From positions 16,171-80,170 of the forward strand of contig CAOJOK010000005.1 in assembly GCA_948440265.1 (NCBI GenBank): DNA of 64,000 nt. The letters run 5' to 3'. Of this stretch, positions 49,168-58,018 are shown one piece after another; position 1 is the first letter of the stretch, and each line of letters begins with the position of its first letter. The notes beneath the pieces are model-generated. The model saw nothing but the letters and a program-made list of their open reading frames with translations, was not told where the DNA came from and ran no database searches. A program made the translations under genes and the position numbers. The DNA comes from an uncultured Clostridia bacterium (GTDB lineage: Bacteria; Bacillota; Clostridia; Christensenellales; Pumilibacteraceae).

Positions 49168-49512
49168 ATGAACATAGCAAAAAAATCTTTTATACTTTAT
49201 GTACTTAAAATGTTGAAACAAGGCTCATCGAGGGACCGACCCATTACATTTACCAATATGACGAAAGTAATGAATTCTATGGGAATTTCATGTACAAGAA
49301 AAACCGTAGGGAGAAATGTGGATTATCTTATAAAGTTCGGCTATCCTATTGTGCGCTTGCCGAGAGGTGGGTGCTATTACGAACAGCCGAAAAAAATATC
49401 TAAAAAGGATTTCGATACGCTCGTAAAGTTGGCTTGGTGGAATGAGGATAGATTTTCAGATAAAAACTTTATTGAAAACCTTAAATTATTGGAGCAAGAA
49501 TTCACTTTATAA
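49168..49512 (+). CDS. Winged-helix DNA-binding protein
   Basis: ITFTNMTKVMNSMGISCTRKTVGRNVDYLIKFGYPI; RBS aaggag. Confidence 0.6.
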   Translation: MNIAKKSFILYVLKMLKQGSSRDRPITFTNMTKVMNSMGISCTRKTVGRNVDYLIKFGYPIVRLPRGGCYYEQPKKISKKDFDTLVKLAWWNEDRFSDKNFIENLKLLEQEFTL

Positions 49513-49549
49513 ACAAAATAAAAAACTTATACAACGGAGATGATATATA

Positions 49550-50689
49550 ATGAATGATTACGGTCGTATGACGAGTGGTTTGGCAAGAGAATATATGAAT
49601 TATGTGTATTCGTGTTCCGCCGATAGAAAAGAAGCAAGAAGTAAAATAGATAGGTTGTTGAACATCGCTGATGTTTTTGGATTTTCGTTTGACCAGTTGG
49701 CAGAAAACGTCGGCGCTATTGCAAATTTGTACGCAAAGATTTGCAATTTTTTAACAATGCAAGATGTCGATTATCGCCAAAAAAGAAGAAGGGTTTTGCT
49801 TGAGGCTCAATCGCATCGCATCGAAAAAGGTAAAATTTTTCGAGATAATGATTTGAATGTTTTTTGTAAAGATATATTTAATGAAAACACATCCGAGTAT
49901 TTTGGTAGTCGCGAATATTTTGATGAAAGAGCATATTTTAATTTTACGGAATTGAGAGATTTGCAGAAATTTATGAATCGGCAGGGCTTTTTTAACGTAT
50001 CGATACCATACGCCGAATTGCTGACCCGAAGTCAAATCAATGAAAAGTTTGTCGCTATGAGAGCCGATAAAGAAAAATACCCGTATAATTATATAGTTAA
50101 AGAGTATCGCTATCCCAGAAAAATAATTTTGAGAGATATGTGTCGTAGCATACATATATTTCGATGGAATAATCTGCCGGGTAAACATGTTTGTAAAGAG
50201 TGCGGAAAGGAATATGTAGGAGATGAGGGTTTGTATATTCAAAGGAATGTCTATTATGCTGGTTTGTGGCAGGACGTAAGCAAAGGTGTTTATATTGAAA
50301 CTGACGGATATTATGGCTTTTTCAATTTGTATAAAAAATTGTTTGATTCCGGTTTTGATGTGAAACTCGTATACAGATGCGAGAAATGCGCGGTGAAAGA
50401 AAGGAAGCCCTTTGTTGAATTTTGGTTTAAAGCAGTCGGCGATGAAAAATACACGGTTACATATCCGTATGACGATTATATCACGCATAGGTTCAATCAC
50501 GAGGAGGAAAAAAAGTTCAACGCAGTTATTTCCAATATTTATAAATTAAAAGCGAAGTGTATCGCAAACGATTATTATGCGGCGCGGGATTTTTTATGCG
50601 GTATTAAACCTGTGTTTGGAAGTATGGATGAACTAATGGAATCAAATAAAGATAAGGCAATTACTAAAATATTAGGTATTGAAAATTAA
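49550..50689 (+). CDS. Hypothetical protein with zinc-binding Cys pairs
   Basis: HVCKECGKEYVGDEG...YRCEKCAVKE; RBS acggagatg. Confidence 0.5.
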   Translation: MNDYGRMTSGLAREYMNYVYSCSADRKEARSKIDRLLNIADVFGFSFDQLAENVGAIANLYAKICNFLTMQDVDYRQKRRRVLLEAQSHRIEKGKIFRDNDLNVFCKDIFNENTSEYFGSREYFDERAYFNFTELRDLQKFMNRQGFFNVSIPYAELLTRSQINEKFVAMRADKEKYPYNYIVKEYRYPRKIILRDMCRSIHIFRWNNLPGKHVCKECGKEYVGDEGLYIQRNVYYAGLWQDVSKGVYIETDGYYGFFNLYKKLFDSGFDVKLVYRCEKCAVKERKPFVEFWFKAVGDEKYTVTYPYDDYITHRFNHEEEKKFNAVISNIYKLKAKCIANDYYAARDFLCGIKPVFGSMDELMESNKDKAITKILGIEN

Positions 50690-50707
50690 TATAAAGGAGA
50701 GTTTATA

Positions 50708-51157
50708 ATGAAAGTATTGAAAGTCGGTAACATATGGGAAGGTGACAGCCATGCCGATATGATTAACCAGGTTCTCGGGACTGATTACAAATCCTATATG
50801 AAATGTTATGTTCCGCTTGCGCCGATTAACGGCATAAAAACGATAGCATGGTTTGTTTATATGGACGGTAGCGTTCATGGGCATACTGTCGATTACTTAT
50901 GGGTGAACAATCTTTCCAAGGACGGAAAAGAGATAGTGGAACGTTGTGTTAGCACCGATAAAAGTTATGTTCAAAAGGTTGCCGAGAATAAGCAGAATGT
51001 TGTAGCGTTTCAGTTGGACCCACACAACACGGGAAAAAGAGCGGATAAGTATAAGTGTAAGTTTGTCGGAGTGTTCGAACAGCAATGCTACGACAGAAAG
51101 AATCTGGAAAGAGTTTATAAACGCATATCCGATACATATGTTTTGGAGAACGAATAA
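50708..51157 (+). CDS. Hypothetical protein
   Basis: 149 aa; C-terminal KYKCKFVGVFEQQCYDRKNLERVYKRISDTYVL; RBS aaaggagag. Confidence 0.5.
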   Translation: MKVLKVGNIWEGDSHADMINQVLGTDYKSYMKCYVPLAPINGIKTIAWFVYMDGSVHGHTVDYLWVNNLSKDGKEIVERCVSTDKSYVQKVAENKQNVVAFQLDPHNTGKRADKYKCKFVGVFEQQCYDRKNLERVYKRISDTYVLENE

Positions 51158-52327: not shown

Positions 52328-52624
52328 TTTTTTTGTGTTCCCGTACAGTTCGCAATATCACCGTTGATACAAAATCGGCTATCGCGGCACAGCAGAAGTA
52401 AATTTAATACAAAACACTCAAAACCTTGCTTTTCGGCAGGGTTTTTTGTTATATACGCCCACTTTCGGCGTACCTGCAGCCAAACGCACGGCATAATTAA
52501 CAATGCGCACGGTCGGAATGGGCGCACTTGCAGTGATAGATAAAAGTGTATCTTTCACGATAATTCGGAATATATAACGACACTTGTCGGTGCAATGTCT
52601 TTATTTTCAATGTAAGATACTTTT

Positions 52625-52825
52625 TTAACCGTTAATTAGGTCGTCTAAAGAGATGTTTAATAAAATAGACAACCGCCTTAACATTTCTATATTCGGTTCT
52701 GTTCTTCCTTGTTCCCAATTCGCGTAGCAACTTTCTACCACATTCAGATTTTGCGCAACCATTTTTTGAGTAAGAGAACATTCTTTTCGAGCGGTCTTTA
52801 AATTATTGCAAAATTGTTTATCCAT
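52625..52825 (-). CDS. XRE family HTH regulator of RiPP locus
   Basis: LKTARKECSLTQKMVAQNLNVVESCYANWEQGRTEPNIEMLRRLSILLNISLDDLI. Confidence 0.85.
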   Translation of the reverse strand: MDKQFCNNLKTARKECSLTQKMVAQNLNVVESCYANWEQGRTEPNIEMLRRLSILLNISLDDLING

Positions 52826-52859
52826 AAAAAAAGTTTAATAAAAAACTAGATAAAATGTC

Positions 52860-52888
52860 TTGACACTAGACAAAATATCTAGTATAAT
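52860..52888 (+). promoter_or_regulatory. Consensus promoter with embedded operator palindrome
   Basis: TTGACA-CTAGACAAAATATCTAG-TATAAT; upstream half-copy ACTAGATAAAATGTCTTG. Confidence 0.85.
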
Positions 52889-52925
52889 TTATTTAAAATA
52901 TCTGGTTTAACAAGGAGAAAAACTT

Positions 52926-53126
52926 ATGTTTCAAATTTCGAAAGAGTTAAAAGAAAAATTGATGGCATTAAGACAAAAATTGCAGCCGCAACCTGTCGGT
53001 GGTCAAGTTTTGGCATATTGTTCGGTTTGCGAAGGTTCTTGTTTGGGGAATTGTATGAATATGTGTAAAGGCGCTTGTGACGGAGGCTGTCAAGGTAGTT
53101 GTTACGGTACAACAGTAGTGAGATAA
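52926..53126 (+). CDS. Cys-rich RiPP precursor with CxxxC repeats
   Basis: ...PQPVGGQVLAYCSVCEGSCLGNCMNMCKGACDGGCQGSCYGTTVVR; 8 Cys, 6 consecutive Cx3C spacings; adjacent rSAM. Confidence 0.8.
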   Translation: MFQISKELKEKLMALRQKLQPQPVGGQVLAYCSVCEGSCLGNCMNMCKGACDGGCQGSCYGTTVVR

Positions 53127-54197
53127 ATGATTGATAAAAAATGTGTAACAATCACTCTTACAGAAATGTGTAACTTGCAGTGTACATACTGCTATGAAAA
53201 GAATAAAAGTAGGCGTAGTATTTCTTTTGAGCGAGCAAAAAAAATACTTGATTATGAGTTTCAAGTCAACGATGGAATGAATGAAATTGAAGTCGATTTT
53301 TTTGGCGGTGAACCGTTTTTTGAATTTGAAACTATGCGTAATCTTGTGGAATATATAAAGGCAAGTTCTTACACGAAAAAATTTATTTTTTTTGTATCCA
53401 CAAATGGAACATTGGTACACGGGGATATACAAGAGTGGTTGCGCCGGAATAGCGATTATGTGTGGTGTGGTTTGAGTCTTGACGGAACAAAAGAGTCACA
53501 TAATAAAAATAGGTCAAATTCATTTGATAATATAGACATAGATTTTTTTGTAAAAACATATCCGGGGCAAGATGTAAAAATGACGGTAGCCGAAAATACC
53601 TTGTCACATTTAAGCGAAAACGTTGTTTACTGTCATCAAAAGGGATTTAATGTAAATTGTAATTTGGCATATGAAATTGATTGGTCTAATTCCGTAAATG
53701 AACAAGAATTGGAAAATCAACTTATGCTGTTAATAGAATTTTACTTAAAGAATCCTTCTATTAAACCTTGTAGTATGTTAAGTTTTCCCATTGAAAGAAT
53801 AAGTGCTACGGAAAAAGCTCGATATTGCGGCGCAGGTATTGAAATGCGAACGTATGATGTTGAGGGCAATGTGTATCCTTGTCATTTTTTTATGCCGATT
53901 TCGGCGGGAGATAAGGCATTAAAATTGGGAGAAGTTACATTCTATGAGAATCCCAATACCGAAAGGTGGGGTGAGTGTTATAGTTGCAATTATTTTAATA
54001 TTTGTCCAAATTGTTATGGGGCAAATTATGTTATGACGGGAGATATTTATAAAAAAGATTTAAATATGTGCCATTTATTTAAAATTATAATGAAAGCAAA
54101 TGCATATTTCGTATCTCGCAGGATAGATTTGGGGCTACTTTCGCAGTCGGAATTGAGTAGACAAACTTTAGATGCAGTGTTAGAGATATTAAAATAG
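53127..54197 (+). CDS. Radical SAM/SPASM peptide maturase
   Basis: LTEMCNLQCTYCYE (CxxxCxxC); CGAGIEMRTYDVEGNVYPC and CYSCNYFNICPNC SPASM motifs. Confidence 0.9.
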   Translation: MIDKKCVTITLTEMCNLQCTYCYEKNKSRRSISFERAKKILDYEFQVNDGMNEIEVDFFGGEPFFEFETMRNLVEYIKASSYTKKFIFFVSTNGTLVHGDIQEWLRRNSDYVWCGLSLDGTKESHNKNRSNSFDNIDIDFFVKTYPGQDVKMTVAENTLSHLSENVVYCHQKGFNVNCNLAYEIDWSNSVNEQELENQLMLLIEFYLKNPSIKPCSMLSFPIERISATEKARYCGAGIEMRTYDVEGNVYPCHFFMPISAGDKALKLGEVTFYENPNTERWGECYSCNYFNICPNCYGANYVMTGDIYKKDLNMCHLFKIIMKANAYFVSRRIDLGLLSQSELSRQTLDAVLEILK

Positions 54198-54482
54198 GGT
54201 AAAAAGCATTTGCGCTGTCGGCGTGACGGAGATAAACAAATTTATATTTTTCGTGTAATTCTGATAAAATGAGACCTTGTGTAAAAACAGGGTCTTTTTT
54301 ATTGCTAAATTATTTACTTTTTTATTATCGTTTGATATAATTAAATCAAGAAATCGGCAAGTATCGTTATTGTTTCCGATATGAGATTTCCCGACCAATA
54401 CATTTATGATATTGAGCGGTATTGAGCCGAGCGAAATTTTCTCCGTGCAATATCGCAAGTGCATAACTTTTTCGAGGTATAT

Positions 54483-55394
54483 ATGAAAAACTGCATTGAA
54501 ATTAACCATCTCAAAAAATATTATAAAGACGTAAAGGCTGTTGACGACATTTCCTTTAAGGTCGAGGAAGGAGAATTCTTCGCCTTTCTCGGTGTAAACG
54601 GCGCAGGAAAGAGCACGACCATATCCATACTTTCGGGCAAAGAAGTGCGCGACGGAGGAGATGTGCTGGTTGACGGCTATGACCCCGACGAAAAGTCGGA
54701 GGAAGTAAAGCGGCGTCTGGGCGTTGTATTTCAGGACAGCGTGCTCGATAAATCGCTTACCGTTTATGATAATCTGCGCTACCGTGCTGCGCTATACAAG
54801 ATTTTCGGCAGCGACTTCAAAAGCAGGCTAAACGAACTCACGGAAACATTTGACTTGCAGGGACTGCTCAAACGTCCCGTCGGGAAACTTTCCGGCGGAC
54901 AAAGGCGGCGGTGCGATATTGCGCGTGCGCTTATACATAACCCCAAAATTCTTGTACTCGACGAACCGACGACGGGACTCGACCCGCAGACGCGCAAGAA
55001 TGTTTGGGCGGCAATCGACAAACTGCGCAAAGAGCGCAATCTCACCGTTTTTTTGACGACGCACTATATGGAAGAAGCGGCGGACGCGGATAGAGTGGTC
55101 ATATTGGACGGCGGCAAAATTTTGGCGGACGCAACGCCGCTCGAACTCAAAAACAAATATACGGGTGACTTTATTACAATATACGGCACAACGCAAAAGG
55201 AGCTTGACTCTCTTGCGCTTCCATATGAAATGGTAGGCGACGGCGCTCGTATTGCGGTTAAAGATACGGCGGAAGCGACGCGGCTCATATTGTCGCATCC
55301 CGATGTTTTCCACGATTACGAAGTGACTAAAGGAAAAATGGACGACGTATTTTTGGCAGTGACGGGAAAGCGGATAGGAGGCGGAGAAGCGTGA
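54483..55394 (+). CDS. ABC transporter ATP-binding protein
   Basis: GVNGAGKSTTISILSG; KLSGGQRRRCDIARALIHNP; LVLDEPTTGLDPQTR. Confidence 0.92.
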   Translation: MKNCIEINHLKKYYKDVKAVDDISFKVEEGEFFAFLGVNGAGKSTTISILSGKEVRDGGDVLVDGYDPDEKSEEVKRRLGVVFQDSVLDKSLTVYDNLRYRAALYKIFGSDFKSRLNELTETFDLQGLLKRPVGKLSGGQRRRCDIARALIHNPKILVLDEPTTGLDPQTRKNVWAAIDKLRKERNLTVFLTTHYMEEAADADRVVILDGGKILADATPLELKNKYTGDFITIYGTTQKELDSLALPYEMVGDGARIAVKDTAEATRLILSHPDVFHDYEVTKGKMDDVFLAVTGKRIGGGEA

Positions 55395-56305
55395 AAACAG
55401 TATTTTTATTGACACAGCGCAATGTTAAAATTTTCTTTCGGGATAAAAGCGTGTTTTTGCCCGCACTTATTGCACCGCTCATTTTGCTCTTTTTGTTTAT
55501 AGCATTTTTGGGCGACGTTTATCGTGATAGCTTTATTTCCGCTCTCGGCGGAATGACTATCGAAAAGTCGATTGTCGAGGGGTTCGCCGGCGGTTGGCTC
55601 ATATCATCGCTGATTGCGGTTTGTGCCGTTTCCATTGCCTTTACGGCAAATATCGTTATGGTGCAGGACCGCGTGTCCGGCGCGCGGCACGACTTTACTG
55701 CTTCTCCCGTATCGAACTCCGCACTTGCGCTTTCATACTTTATTGCGACGGCAATAGTTACCTCCGTTATTTGTTTTGCGGCGCTCTTTATAGGCTTCAT
55801 CTATATCGCCTGCGTTGGTTGGTATTTGAGTGTGGCGGACGTGTTTTTGACCATACTCGACACATTCATATTGGTGCTGTTCGGAACGGCATTGTCTACG
55901 TTAGTCAATTACTTTATCCGTTCTCAAGGCGGTATTACGGCAGTAGAGGCGATTGTTTCGTCGGCGTACGGATTTCTCTGCGGCGCATATATGCCCATTT
56001 CTTCACTTGCGGCAGGGCTTAAGGACGTCATTTTATTTTTGCCAGGCACTTACGGCACGTCGCTTATGCACACGCATCTGATGAACGGCGCTGTAGAAGC
56101 GGCTGGCAGCAGTCTTTCTCTGCCTGCGGAGGCAATGAAAGGAGTTTTGGACGGGTTCGACTGCAATCTGTATTTCTTCGATAACGCCGTACCTGTTTGG
56201 GTAAAATATCTCGTAATTTGCGCGGCTGTAGCCGTGCTTGTGGGCGTTTATATTTTGTTGTGTTCTCTGCACAAAAAATCCGCTTCCGCAAAAAAGAAAT
56301 CGTAA
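55391..56305 (+). CDS. ABC-2 type permease
   Basis: Six hydrophobic segments, start overlaps ATPase stop. Confidence 0.88.
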   Translation: MKTVFLLTQRNVKIFFRDKSVFLPALIAPLILLFLFIAFLGDVYRDSFISALGGMTIEKSIVEGFAGGWLISSLIAVCAVSIAFTANIVMVQDRVSGARHDFTASPVSNSALALSYFIATAIVTSVICFAALFIGFIYIACVGWYLSVADVFLTILDTFILVLFGTALSTLVNYFIRSQGGITAVEAIVSSAYGFLCGAYMPISSLAAGLKDVILFLPGTYGTSLMHTHLMNGAVEAAGSSLSLPAEAMKGVLDGFDCNLYFFDNAVPVWVKYLVICAAVAVLVGVYILLCSLHKKSASAKKKS

Positions 56306-57128: not shown

Positions 57129-57362
57129 ATGAATAAATCAATCATAGAGTTTGACAGACTTGTGTTCGGAAAAAGACTGAAAGAATTGCGTAATGAAAAA
57201 CATTTGGGGCAGAACAGGCTTGCCAAAGAATTGCAGTTCAGTAACGCAAGTATCAGTTATTGGGAAACGGGAAAGAAAGAGCCGAGTGCTTCCGCGTTAT
57301 TTAAATTGGCGCAGTATTTCGATGTCAGTTTGGATTACCTGCTCGGACTGAAAGACTATTAG
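57129..57362 (+). CDS. XRE family HTH regulator
   Basis: GKRLKELRNEKHLGQNRLAKELQFSNASISYWETGKKEPSASALFKLAQYFDVSLDYLLG. Confidence 0.88.
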   Translation: MNKSIIEFDRLVFGKRLKELRNEKHLGQNRLAKELQFSNASISYWETGKKEPSASALFKLAQYFDVSLDYLLGLKDY

Positions 57363-57370
57363 GAGAGAAT

Positions 57371-58018
57371 TTGTATATGAACTTATTATTCAAAAATAAG
57401 GACGCGATACATCCCCAACCGTTAGTGCCGTCGCTTTGTTATATAAAGAACATAGTAAAAAATCCCAATATAATTATCGGCGATTATACGTATTACGATG
57501 ATATAAATTCGGGCGGAGAAGATTTTGAAAAGCACGTCACGCATTTTTATCCGCATTTGGGCGACAGGCTTATAATCGGAAAGTTTTGCAGTATTGCAAA
57601 AGGCGTGGAGTTTGTAATGAATGGCGCCAATCACCCTATGGACGGTATCTCTGCGTTTCCTTTCGGAATATTTATAGACGGCAAGCCTGCTATACCGAAA
57701 AATATAGTTAAAAATAAGGGGGACACCGTTATAGGCAACGACGTGTGGATAGGGCAAAACGTAACTTTTATGCCGGGAGTTAAAGTGGGCGACGGTTCCA
57801 TTATAGGCACAAATGCCGTGGTCGCAAAAGACATTCCGCCGTATTCTATTGCAGTGGGCAATCCCGCAAGAGTGGTTAAAAGACGCTTCGACGACGAAAT
57901 AATAAAAAAGCTGCTTGCTTTAAAATGGTGGGATATGCCTGCGGAAACAATCGAAAAAAACTATGAATTGCTGCAAGATAAAAATATCGAAAAGTTCATT
58001 GCGAAATTCACAAAGTAA
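57371..58018 (+). CDS. Vat/CatB-like xenobiotic acetyltransferase (hexapeptide repeat)
   Basis: GDYTYYDD...HYP/FYPHLGDRLIIGKFCSIAKGVEFVMNGANHPMDG; NDVWIGQNVTFMPGVKVGDGSIIGTNAVV; IKKLLALKWWD. Confidence 0.82.
   Translation: MYMNLLFKNKDAIHPQPLVPSLCYIKNIVKNPNIIIGDYTYYDDINSGGEDFEKHVTHFYPHLGDRLIIGKFCSIAKGVEFVMNGANHPMDGISAFPFGIFIDGKPAIPKNIVKNKGDTVIGNDVWIGQNVTFMPGVKVGDGSIIGTNAVVAKDIPPYSIAVGNPARVVKRRFDDEIIKKLLALKWWDMPAETIEKNYELLQDKNIEKFIAKFTK

What the first reader, a model, noticed from the sequence alone, without database searches (positions are those of the whole stretch)
52625..54197. Candidate radical-SAM RiPP with CxxxC-ladder precursor
A 66-aa precursor has a basic/charged leader ending PVGG. 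Its core holds eight Cys spaced Cx2C then six times Cx3C (CSVCEGSCLGNCMNMCKGACDGGCQGSC). It is followed at once by a radical SAM enzyme with CxxxCxxC and full SPASM cysteines. Known rSAM/SPASM enzymes install thioether or related crosslinks in Cys-rich precursors, and CXXX-repeat target families have been named in TIGRFAMs/NCBIfam. The exact match to a known class cannot be settled here.
Basis: partly seen in the sequence, partly recalled or inferred. Interest (0 to 1): 0.75.

Follow-up and report, generated by a model that had tools for sequence, protein, structure and literature searches.

The report
Cysteine-ladder peptide with radical-SAM maturase
A gut bacterium carries a small, tightly regulated two-gene cassette that makes a peptide with a ladder of evenly spaced cysteines and the radical enzyme that very probably stitches them; the cassette belongs to a large family found across many phyla whose chemistry has not been established and which matches no curated maturase model.

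Summary
A 66-aa ORF (52926-53126) with Cys spaced CX2C then six CX3C is followed at once by a 356-aa radical SAM/SPASM enzyme (53127-54197). A divergent XRE repressor gene (52625-52825) and a perfect sigma-70 promoter overlapped by an inverted repeat precede them; a terminator follows. Pumilibacter muris has the same cassette at the same place (82% identical enzyme, precursor dN/dS about 0.11). Two other genomes of these two genera have an empty site. In a survey of 74 genomes of the family the precursor occurs only where this maturase does. Among 80 maturase relatives from many bacterial phyla and archaea, 35 have a CX3C-ladder ORF within 800 bp on the same strand, against 1/80 on the opposite strand. 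The precursor just passes NCBIfam TIGR04114; the enzyme is far below the cut-offs of every maturase model, including CXXX-repeat (140 of 350 bits) and PapB (151 of 340). It lacks an N-terminal RRE and has a variant SPASM motif. The repeat unit is C-x-G-x, not PapA's CX3D. Best reading: a new, widespread subfamily of CXXX-repeat radical-SAM RiPPs, probably thioether cross-linked; the acceptor atom is unknown. Side finding: related clusters carry IPP isomerase and ABBA-prenyltransferase-like genes.

The parts
52420..52445 (+). terminator-like hairpin closing the rpsF-ssb-rpsR operon upstream of the cassette
52625..52825 (-). divergent 66-aa XRE/Cro-C1 helix-turn-helix regulator, probable repressor of the cassette
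   Evidence: PF01381 E 3.1e-12; a divergent XRE lies at the same place in P. muris L028, L029, L037, L031, L032
52845..52883 (.). inverted repeat ACTAGATAAAATGTCT / AGACAAAATATCTAGT (81% complementary), probable operator overlapping the promoter; a further AAAATATCTGGT copy at 52895-52910
   Evidence: AGACAAAATATCTAGT occurs only here in the whole genome, up to 2 mismatches
52860..52888 (+). perfect sigma-70 consensus promoter TTGACA-17-TATAAT (12/12)
   Evidence: P. muris also has TTGACA-17-TATAAT in front of its precursor, with a different inverted repeat (sequence read)
52912..52917 (+). ribosome-binding site AAGGAG
   Evidence: read directly
52926..53126 (+). 66-aa RiPP precursor: leader residues 1-31 (MFxIxxEL start), core Cys32-Cys59 as CX2C(X3C)6 made of C-x-G-x units
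   Evidence: TIGR04114 20.7 bits, cut-off 20; dN/dS about 0.11 against P. muris; repeat statistics
53127..54197 (+). 356-aa radical SAM/SPASM maturase without N-terminal RRE; SPASM motif CX2CX5CX2C-x3-N
   Evidence: PF04055 E 1.6e-9; nearest NCBIfam models all below cut-off; AF2 pLDDT 93.6; nearest PDB fold CteB 5why, E 4e-19
54271..54296 (+). terminator-like hairpin closing the cassette

Best explanation
It is a horizontally variable RiPP cassette. An XRE repressor sits on an operator that overlaps a full-consensus promoter and keeps it silent until derepressed (inferred). When expressed, precursor and maturase are made together. The maturase has no RRE domain, so it probably recognises the N-terminal leader (MFxIxxEL in this clade) directly (inferred). 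It then uses SAM cleavage and two auxiliary Fe-S clusters to oxidise successive C-x-G-x units of the core, most likely forming one sulfur-to-carbon thioether per unit (up to seven or eight, -2 Da each). That the pair forms one functional unit is supported by conservation and co-occurrence. Thioether as the product is inferred from fold and family. The acceptor (Gly at +2, or the small residue at +3) and the carbon position are unknown. No dedicated protease or exporter is linked, so leader removal and export, if they occur, rely on functions elsewhere. It is a member of a new, widespread subfamily next to the NCBIfam CXXX-repeat system (TIGR04114/04115).
For: Precursor and enzyme conserved together: P. 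muris with the same order and site; 3/3 co-occurrence in the family; dN/dS about 0.11 and 0.05. Ladder ORF (CX3C>=3) within 800 bp of 35/80 relatives' maturases on the same strand, 1/80 on the opposite strand, 1/67 in distant windows of the same loci. Repeat unit: X2 is Gly in 124 of 213 CX3C units; Gly also follows the last Cys at +2 (17/42) but rarely precedes the first at -2 (4/42), Fisher p 0.002. Fold nearest to the thioether-forming SCIFF maturase CteB. Enzyme model starts at the barrel with no RRE; first cluster Cys at residue 15, family median 24, against 79-129 in SCIFF-type maturases. Shared CX2CX5CX2C SPASM motif with TIGR04115 members L024 and L010; SCIFF-type enzymes have CX3C. 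Regulation. Variable presence: G001 and G019 have rpsR without the cassette.
Against: No chemistry is shown. PapA's acceptor pattern (CX3D) is absent: Asp at i+4 in 4 cases against Cys in 216, so transfer of PapB chemistry is not direct. The same fold also serves sulfatase maturases and other rSAM peptide enzymes. About half of the 80 relatives have no CX3C-ladder ORF nearby, and one Clostridial sister clade has a CX4C...AW core instead. The CX3C statistics come from ORFs chosen for having CX3C; the Gly and CX2C-first results do not depend on that choice, but the sequences are related to each other.
Confidence: 0.62

Rival explanations
1. It is an ordinary ranthipeptide of the PapA/PapB kind: Cys thiols joined to beta/gamma carbons of acceptors four residues on.
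For: PapB model NF047865 is the top hit (E 3.7e-44); PapB makes multiple linked and nested CX3D rings (PMC9413430).
Against: 151 bits against a cut-off of 340; the best SCIFF-type maturases of the phylum score 250-316 on the same model, so the window enzyme is farther from PapB than they are. Position i+4 is Cys, not Asp/Glu.
Confidence: 0.12
2. The radical enzyme does something other than thioether formation on the C-x-G-x units (epimerisation, Cys oxidation to thioaldehyde/formylglycine, C-C linkage), and the Cys ladder then serves metal binding or disulfides.
For: The fold also matches anaerobic sulfatase maturases, which oxidise Cys, and more weakly the epimerase EpeE. Dense regularly spaced Cys could bind metal. 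No characterised enzyme is known to me in the clade.
Against: The nearest solved structure is the thioether-forming CteB by sequence and fold. The seven-Cys SPASM set is invariant.
Confidence: 0.2
3. The core forms Cys-to-Cys links: sulfur of Cys i bonded to the beta carbon of Cys i+4, giving a chain of lanthionine/dithioacetal-like links without precedent known to me.
For: Position i+4 of a core Cys is another Cys in 216 cases; PapB-type chemistry targets exactly i+4 (PMC9413430).
Against: Conserved Gly at +2, also after the last Cys, points to an acceptor inside the C-x-G-x unit.
Confidence: 0.06

Closest known systems
CXXX-repeat radical SAM system (NCBIfam TIGR04114 repeat, TIGR04115 maturase, TIGR04117/04118 targets, TIGR04119 partner)
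   Same: Period-4 Cys repeats in the target; adjacent rSAM/SPASM enzyme; same CX2CX5CX2C SPASM motif.
   Different: Window enzyme at 140 of 350 bits for TIGR04115; no TIGR04119 domain (Anaerococcus L024 has it in a 728-aa fusion); separate clade of 83 rows (SH-aLRT 98). I found no characterised product: the accessions TIGR04114, 04115, 04118 and 04119 are named in no paper of the open library.
PapB/freyrasin ranthipeptides (NF047865)
   Same: Multiple short Cys repeats in one precursor, rSAM/SPASM enzyme.
   Different: No CX3D, no RRE, 151 of 340 bits. PapB work assumes RRE-leader binding (PMC9413430).
SCIFF / CteB (TIGR03974, PDB 5wgg, 5why)
   Same: Nearest solved structure, TM-score 0.75 (query-normalised), 23% identity.
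   Different: No N-terminal extension in the window enzyme, SPASM motif differs, 99 of 425 bits. The host also has its own separate SCIFF-type enzyme on contig C1.
Cys-every-fifth RiPP maturase CefB (NF038107)
   Same: Regularly spaced Cys targets, by the family's name.
   Different: 57 of 600 bits; core spacing here is every fourth residue.
ChlB (PDB 9gm3, 9gmc)
   Same: Similar-size rSAM maturase solved with the leader of its precursor bound; TM-score 0.70. A possible model for leader recognition.
   Different: Sequence identity 16-17%; relation is structural only.

Membership tests
TIGR04114 (Cys-rich CXXX repeat target) | score at or above the curated cut-off of 20 bits | tested here: met
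   window precursor 20.7 bits, barely; the P. muris orthologue scores 15.5, several other family precursors 23-28 and others 14-16
TIGR04115 (CXXX-repeat rSAM maturase) | score at or above 350 bits | tested here: not met
   140 bits; eight further family members scanned give 128-156 or fall below the listing limit, while true members L024 and L010 give 487 and 398
TIGR04115 (CXXX-repeat rSAM maturase) | SPASM CX2CX5CX2C motif shared by its members L024 and L010 | tested here: met
   80 of 86 family rows; none with CX2CX5CX3C
PapB ranthipeptide maturase (NF047865) | score at or above 340 bits | tested here: not met
   151 bits
PapA/freyrasin precursor | CX3D (or CX3E) acceptor motifs | tested here: not met
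   i+4 residue is Cys in the ladder; Asp in 4 cases over 42 precursors
SCIFF | TIGR03974 maturase cut-off 425 bits | tested here: not met
   99.5 bits
Radical SAM RiPP (general) | CX3CX2C cluster motif, SPASM Cys and an adjacent conserved small precursor | tested here: met
Radical SAM RiPP (general) | post-translational modification of the precursor by the enzyme | not testable with these tools
   needs co-expression and mass spectrometry
Double-glycine leader RiPP exported by a peptidase-containing ABC transporter | conserved GG site and C39 peptidase in the genome | tested here: not met
   GG replaced by GI in P. muris; no PF03412 hit in the genome while 8 of 14 controls ring
Sactipeptide (Calpha thioether) | sulfur-to-alpha-carbon bond | not testable with these tools
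   Gly at +2 is compatible with it but does not show it

The most novel reading that the evidence does not exclude
The clade makes a chemically new kind of RiPP: a continuous chain of small thioether rings in tandem C-x-G-x units (Calpha-Gly thioethers, or Cys-to-Cys links), installed processively by an RRE-less radical enzyme. In relatives the same scaffold is further prenylated by an ABBA-type prenyltransferase supplied by a clustered IPP isomerase.
Probability: 0.25. Interest if true: 0.78.

Novelty: new variant of a known kind. Interest (0 to 1): 0.52.

Why it matters
The CXXX-repeat maturases have been named in NCBIfam, but I found no characterised product. This work delimits a clade of maturases, with its own signature (no RRE, CX2CX5CX2C-x3-N), that spreads over Bacillota, Bacteroidota, Verrucomicrobiota, Kiritimatiellota, Acidobacteriota, Chlorobiota, Chloroflexota, Spirochaetota and methanogens; none of the members scanned in full reaches a curated maturase model. 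It identifies the repeat unit (C-x-G-x) and a simple two-gene test case, present also in the named strain P. muris CLA-AA-M08, that would settle the chemistry by one co-expression experiment.

Tried and rejected
ABC-2 transporter genes 54459-56305 as part of the cluster: rejected, because P. muris has an ABC-F-like gene there instead. Double-glycine export: rejected. Phage or plasmid origin: no nucleotide match in the phage collection; only distant tblastn hits in phage and plasmid records. SCIFF-type loci as a null for ladder ORFs: not clean, because those loci are not oriented and SCIFF peptides are themselves Cys-rich; opposite strand and distant windows were used instead. Divergent XRE as a family-wide feature: rejected, only 7 of 85 loci, mainly the Clostridial clade. 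hhalign between the two prenyltransferase-like groups: inconclusive. Literature on TIGR04114-04119 accession numbers: none in the open library; the J. Bacteriol. paper on rSAM families and their target peptides is not held.

Full report
Observation. The window holds a precursor ORF at 52926-53126 and a radical SAM/SPASM gene at 53127-54197, directly adjacent (TAA-ATG), both on the plus strand. The start coordinate given (52625) belongs to a divergent XRE regulator (52625-52825, minus strand; PF01381 E 3.1e-12). The enzyme has the CX3CX2C motif at residues 15-22 and seven SPASM Cys at 234, 252, 284, 287, 293, 296 and 315.

Anatomy. The cassette lies between two terminator-like hairpins (52420-52445 and 54271-54296), behind rpsF-ssb-rpsR. 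It has about 33% GC against about 50% in the flanking genes. In front of the precursor is a 12/12 sigma-70 promoter (52860-52888) overlapped by an imperfect inverted repeat (52845-52883); one arm of it occurs nowhere else in the 1.86-Mb genome within two mismatches. Pumilibacter muris has the same layout: XRE, TTGACA-17-TATAAT with its own inverted repeat, precursor, maturase, again after rpsR. Reading the XRE protein as a repressor of this promoter is inference. G001 (same genus) and G019 (genus of P. muris) have rpsR without the cassette, so its presence is variable.

Conservation. Between the window and P. muris the precursor has dN 0.14 and dS 1.26, and the enzyme dN 0.11 and dS 2.1, so the small ORF is a protein under purifying selection. 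In 74 genomes of the family the precursor is found in three (G000, G002, G008). The same three are the only ones among the 101 genomes searched (own and relatives) with a close maturase (E below 1e-80).

The family. A scan of GTDB genomes with an alignment of six enzymes returned 80 loci. A CX3C-ladder ORF (three or more CX3C) lies within 800 bp on the same strand in 35 of 80, against 1 of 80 on the opposite strand and 1 of 67 in distant windows. A tree of 96 sequences places the 83 family members, including the window, apart from TIGR04115 references and SCIFF-type maturases (SH-aLRT 98; quick method, midpoint root). Within it the window enzyme pairs with P. muris (100) inside a 23-row, mainly Clostridial group (95). 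Members come from Bacillota, Bacteroidota, Kiritimatiellota, Verrucomicrobiota, Acidobacteriota, Chlorobiota, Chloroflexota, Nitrospirota, Spirochaetota, Elusimicrobiota, Actinomycetota, Pseudomonadota, Aminicenantes and methanogens, as the record titles say; many are MAGs, so single assignments may be wrong.

Family tests. The precursor just reaches TIGR04114 (20.7 vs 20 bits); orthologues and relatives scatter around that cut-off. The enzyme reaches no maturase model: PapB 151 of 340, TIGR04115 140 of 350, SCIFF 99 of 425, CcpM 100 of 500, CefB 57 of 600. SCIFF-type enzymes of the phylum score higher on the PapB model (up to 316) than the window enzyme does, so the PapB hit is not specific. 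Family enzymes and true TIGR04115 members (L024 487 bits, L010 398 bits) share the SPASM spacing CX2CX5CX2C, while SCIFF-type ones have CX2CX5CX3C. The family also lacks the roughly 80-residue N-terminal extension of SCIFF-type enzymes. I therefore call it a new subfamily beside TIGR04115, not a member of it.

The core. In 42 precursors collected from the loci (membership was chosen by CX3C content, so the CX3C frequency itself is biased), the X2 position is Gly in 124 of 213 units and X3 is mostly Ser, Thr, Gly or Asn. The ladder begins with CX2C in 20 of 42, as in the window. Gly stands two residues after the last Cys in 17 of 42 but two before the first Cys in only 4 (p 0.002), so the unit reads C-x-G-x. 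Acceptor-type Asp at i+4, which defines PapA (PMC9413430), is nearly absent.

Structure and mechanism. The AF2 model (pLDDT 93.6) begins at the barrel; no RRE is present. The nearest solved structures are CteB (5why, E 4e-19), then anSME, ChlB with bound leader, TigE and SuiB. Established chemistry of CteB- and PapB-type enzymes (hydrogen abstraction by 5'-deoxyadenosyl radical, thioether closure, -2 Da) makes thioether cross-links within C-x-G-x units the most likely outcome. This step, leader recognition through the MFxIxxEL start that recurs in the Clostridial clade, and the atom attacked are inferred.

Relatives with prenylation genes. In L026 (G008, same family), L029, L036 and L037 a 240-270-aa protein lies beside the maturase. 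Its AF2 model (L037, pLDDT 79) matches only ABBA prenyltransferases among the top 45 PDB hits (AmbP3, tryptophan dimethylallyltransferases, KgpF, PatF). IPP-isomerase-like genes accompany it in L026 and L037. A sister clade (L044, L045, L047, L052, L054, L060) has a short core ending GCx4C[QM]AW[DA] with invariant Trp. L060 has a NUDIX/IPP-isomerase-like gene a few genes on, and L039 has a Trp_DMAT-like gene (E 3e-4, below cut-off) and a NUDIX/IPP-isomerase-like gene. The window locus has none of these.

Verdict.

Noticed in passing
L037:8097-8828, L026:4914-5735 (-), L029:6106-6867, L036:7308-8045: Putative ABBA-fold prenyltransferases beside the CX3C peptide and rSAM enzyme, with IPP isomerase genes in L026 and L037: a possible prenylated radical-SAM RiPP. 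No Pfam or NCBIfam match; identified by AF2 model and Foldseek.
   Followed up: partly
L044, L045, L047, L052, L054, L060 (precursor upstream of the rSAM gene): Sister-clade precursors have a short core GCx4C[QM]AW[DA] with invariant Trp instead of a ladder; a Ser/Thr-kinase-like gene follows the rSAM gene in L060 (Pfam), and similar-looking ORFs follow it in L045 and L052.
   Followed up: partly
L095 (Acidobacteriaceae), two ORFs about 0.7-1.1 kb upstream of the rSAM gene: CX3C-ladder precursors whose leader carries a twin-arginine-like signal (RRQFLR + hydrophobic stretch), suggesting export of an already modified, folded peptide through Tat.
   Followed up: no
L067 (Kiritimatiellae), 1.2-2.1 kb after the rSAM start: Three different CX3C-ladder precursors in tandem after one maturase.
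   Followed up: no
L023 (MT836223.1, 'Bacteriophage sp.', unverified): Two related rSAM genes flanking a CX3C precursor in a record labelled phage; Bacteroidota relatives (Barnesiella, Prevotella) carry close homologues, so the phage label may be wrong.
   Followed up: no
window 57129-58018: XRE-type HTH followed by a Vat-like streptogramin/xenobiotic acetyltransferase (262 bits against a cut-off of 300 for Vat_ABCDEFH).
   Followed up: no
window 49168-51157: Another AT-rich stretch (35-39% GC from 50000 on) with an SRA-like domain protein (50708-51157, PF18491 E 2.5e-12) and a 379-aa protein without Pfam match; possible modified-DNA-binding island.
   Followed up: no
window rpsR 3' side, P. 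muris L028, G001 L208, G019 L210: The intergenic spot after rpsR holds the cassette in two genera and is empty in others, a possible insertion hot spot.
   Followed up: partly
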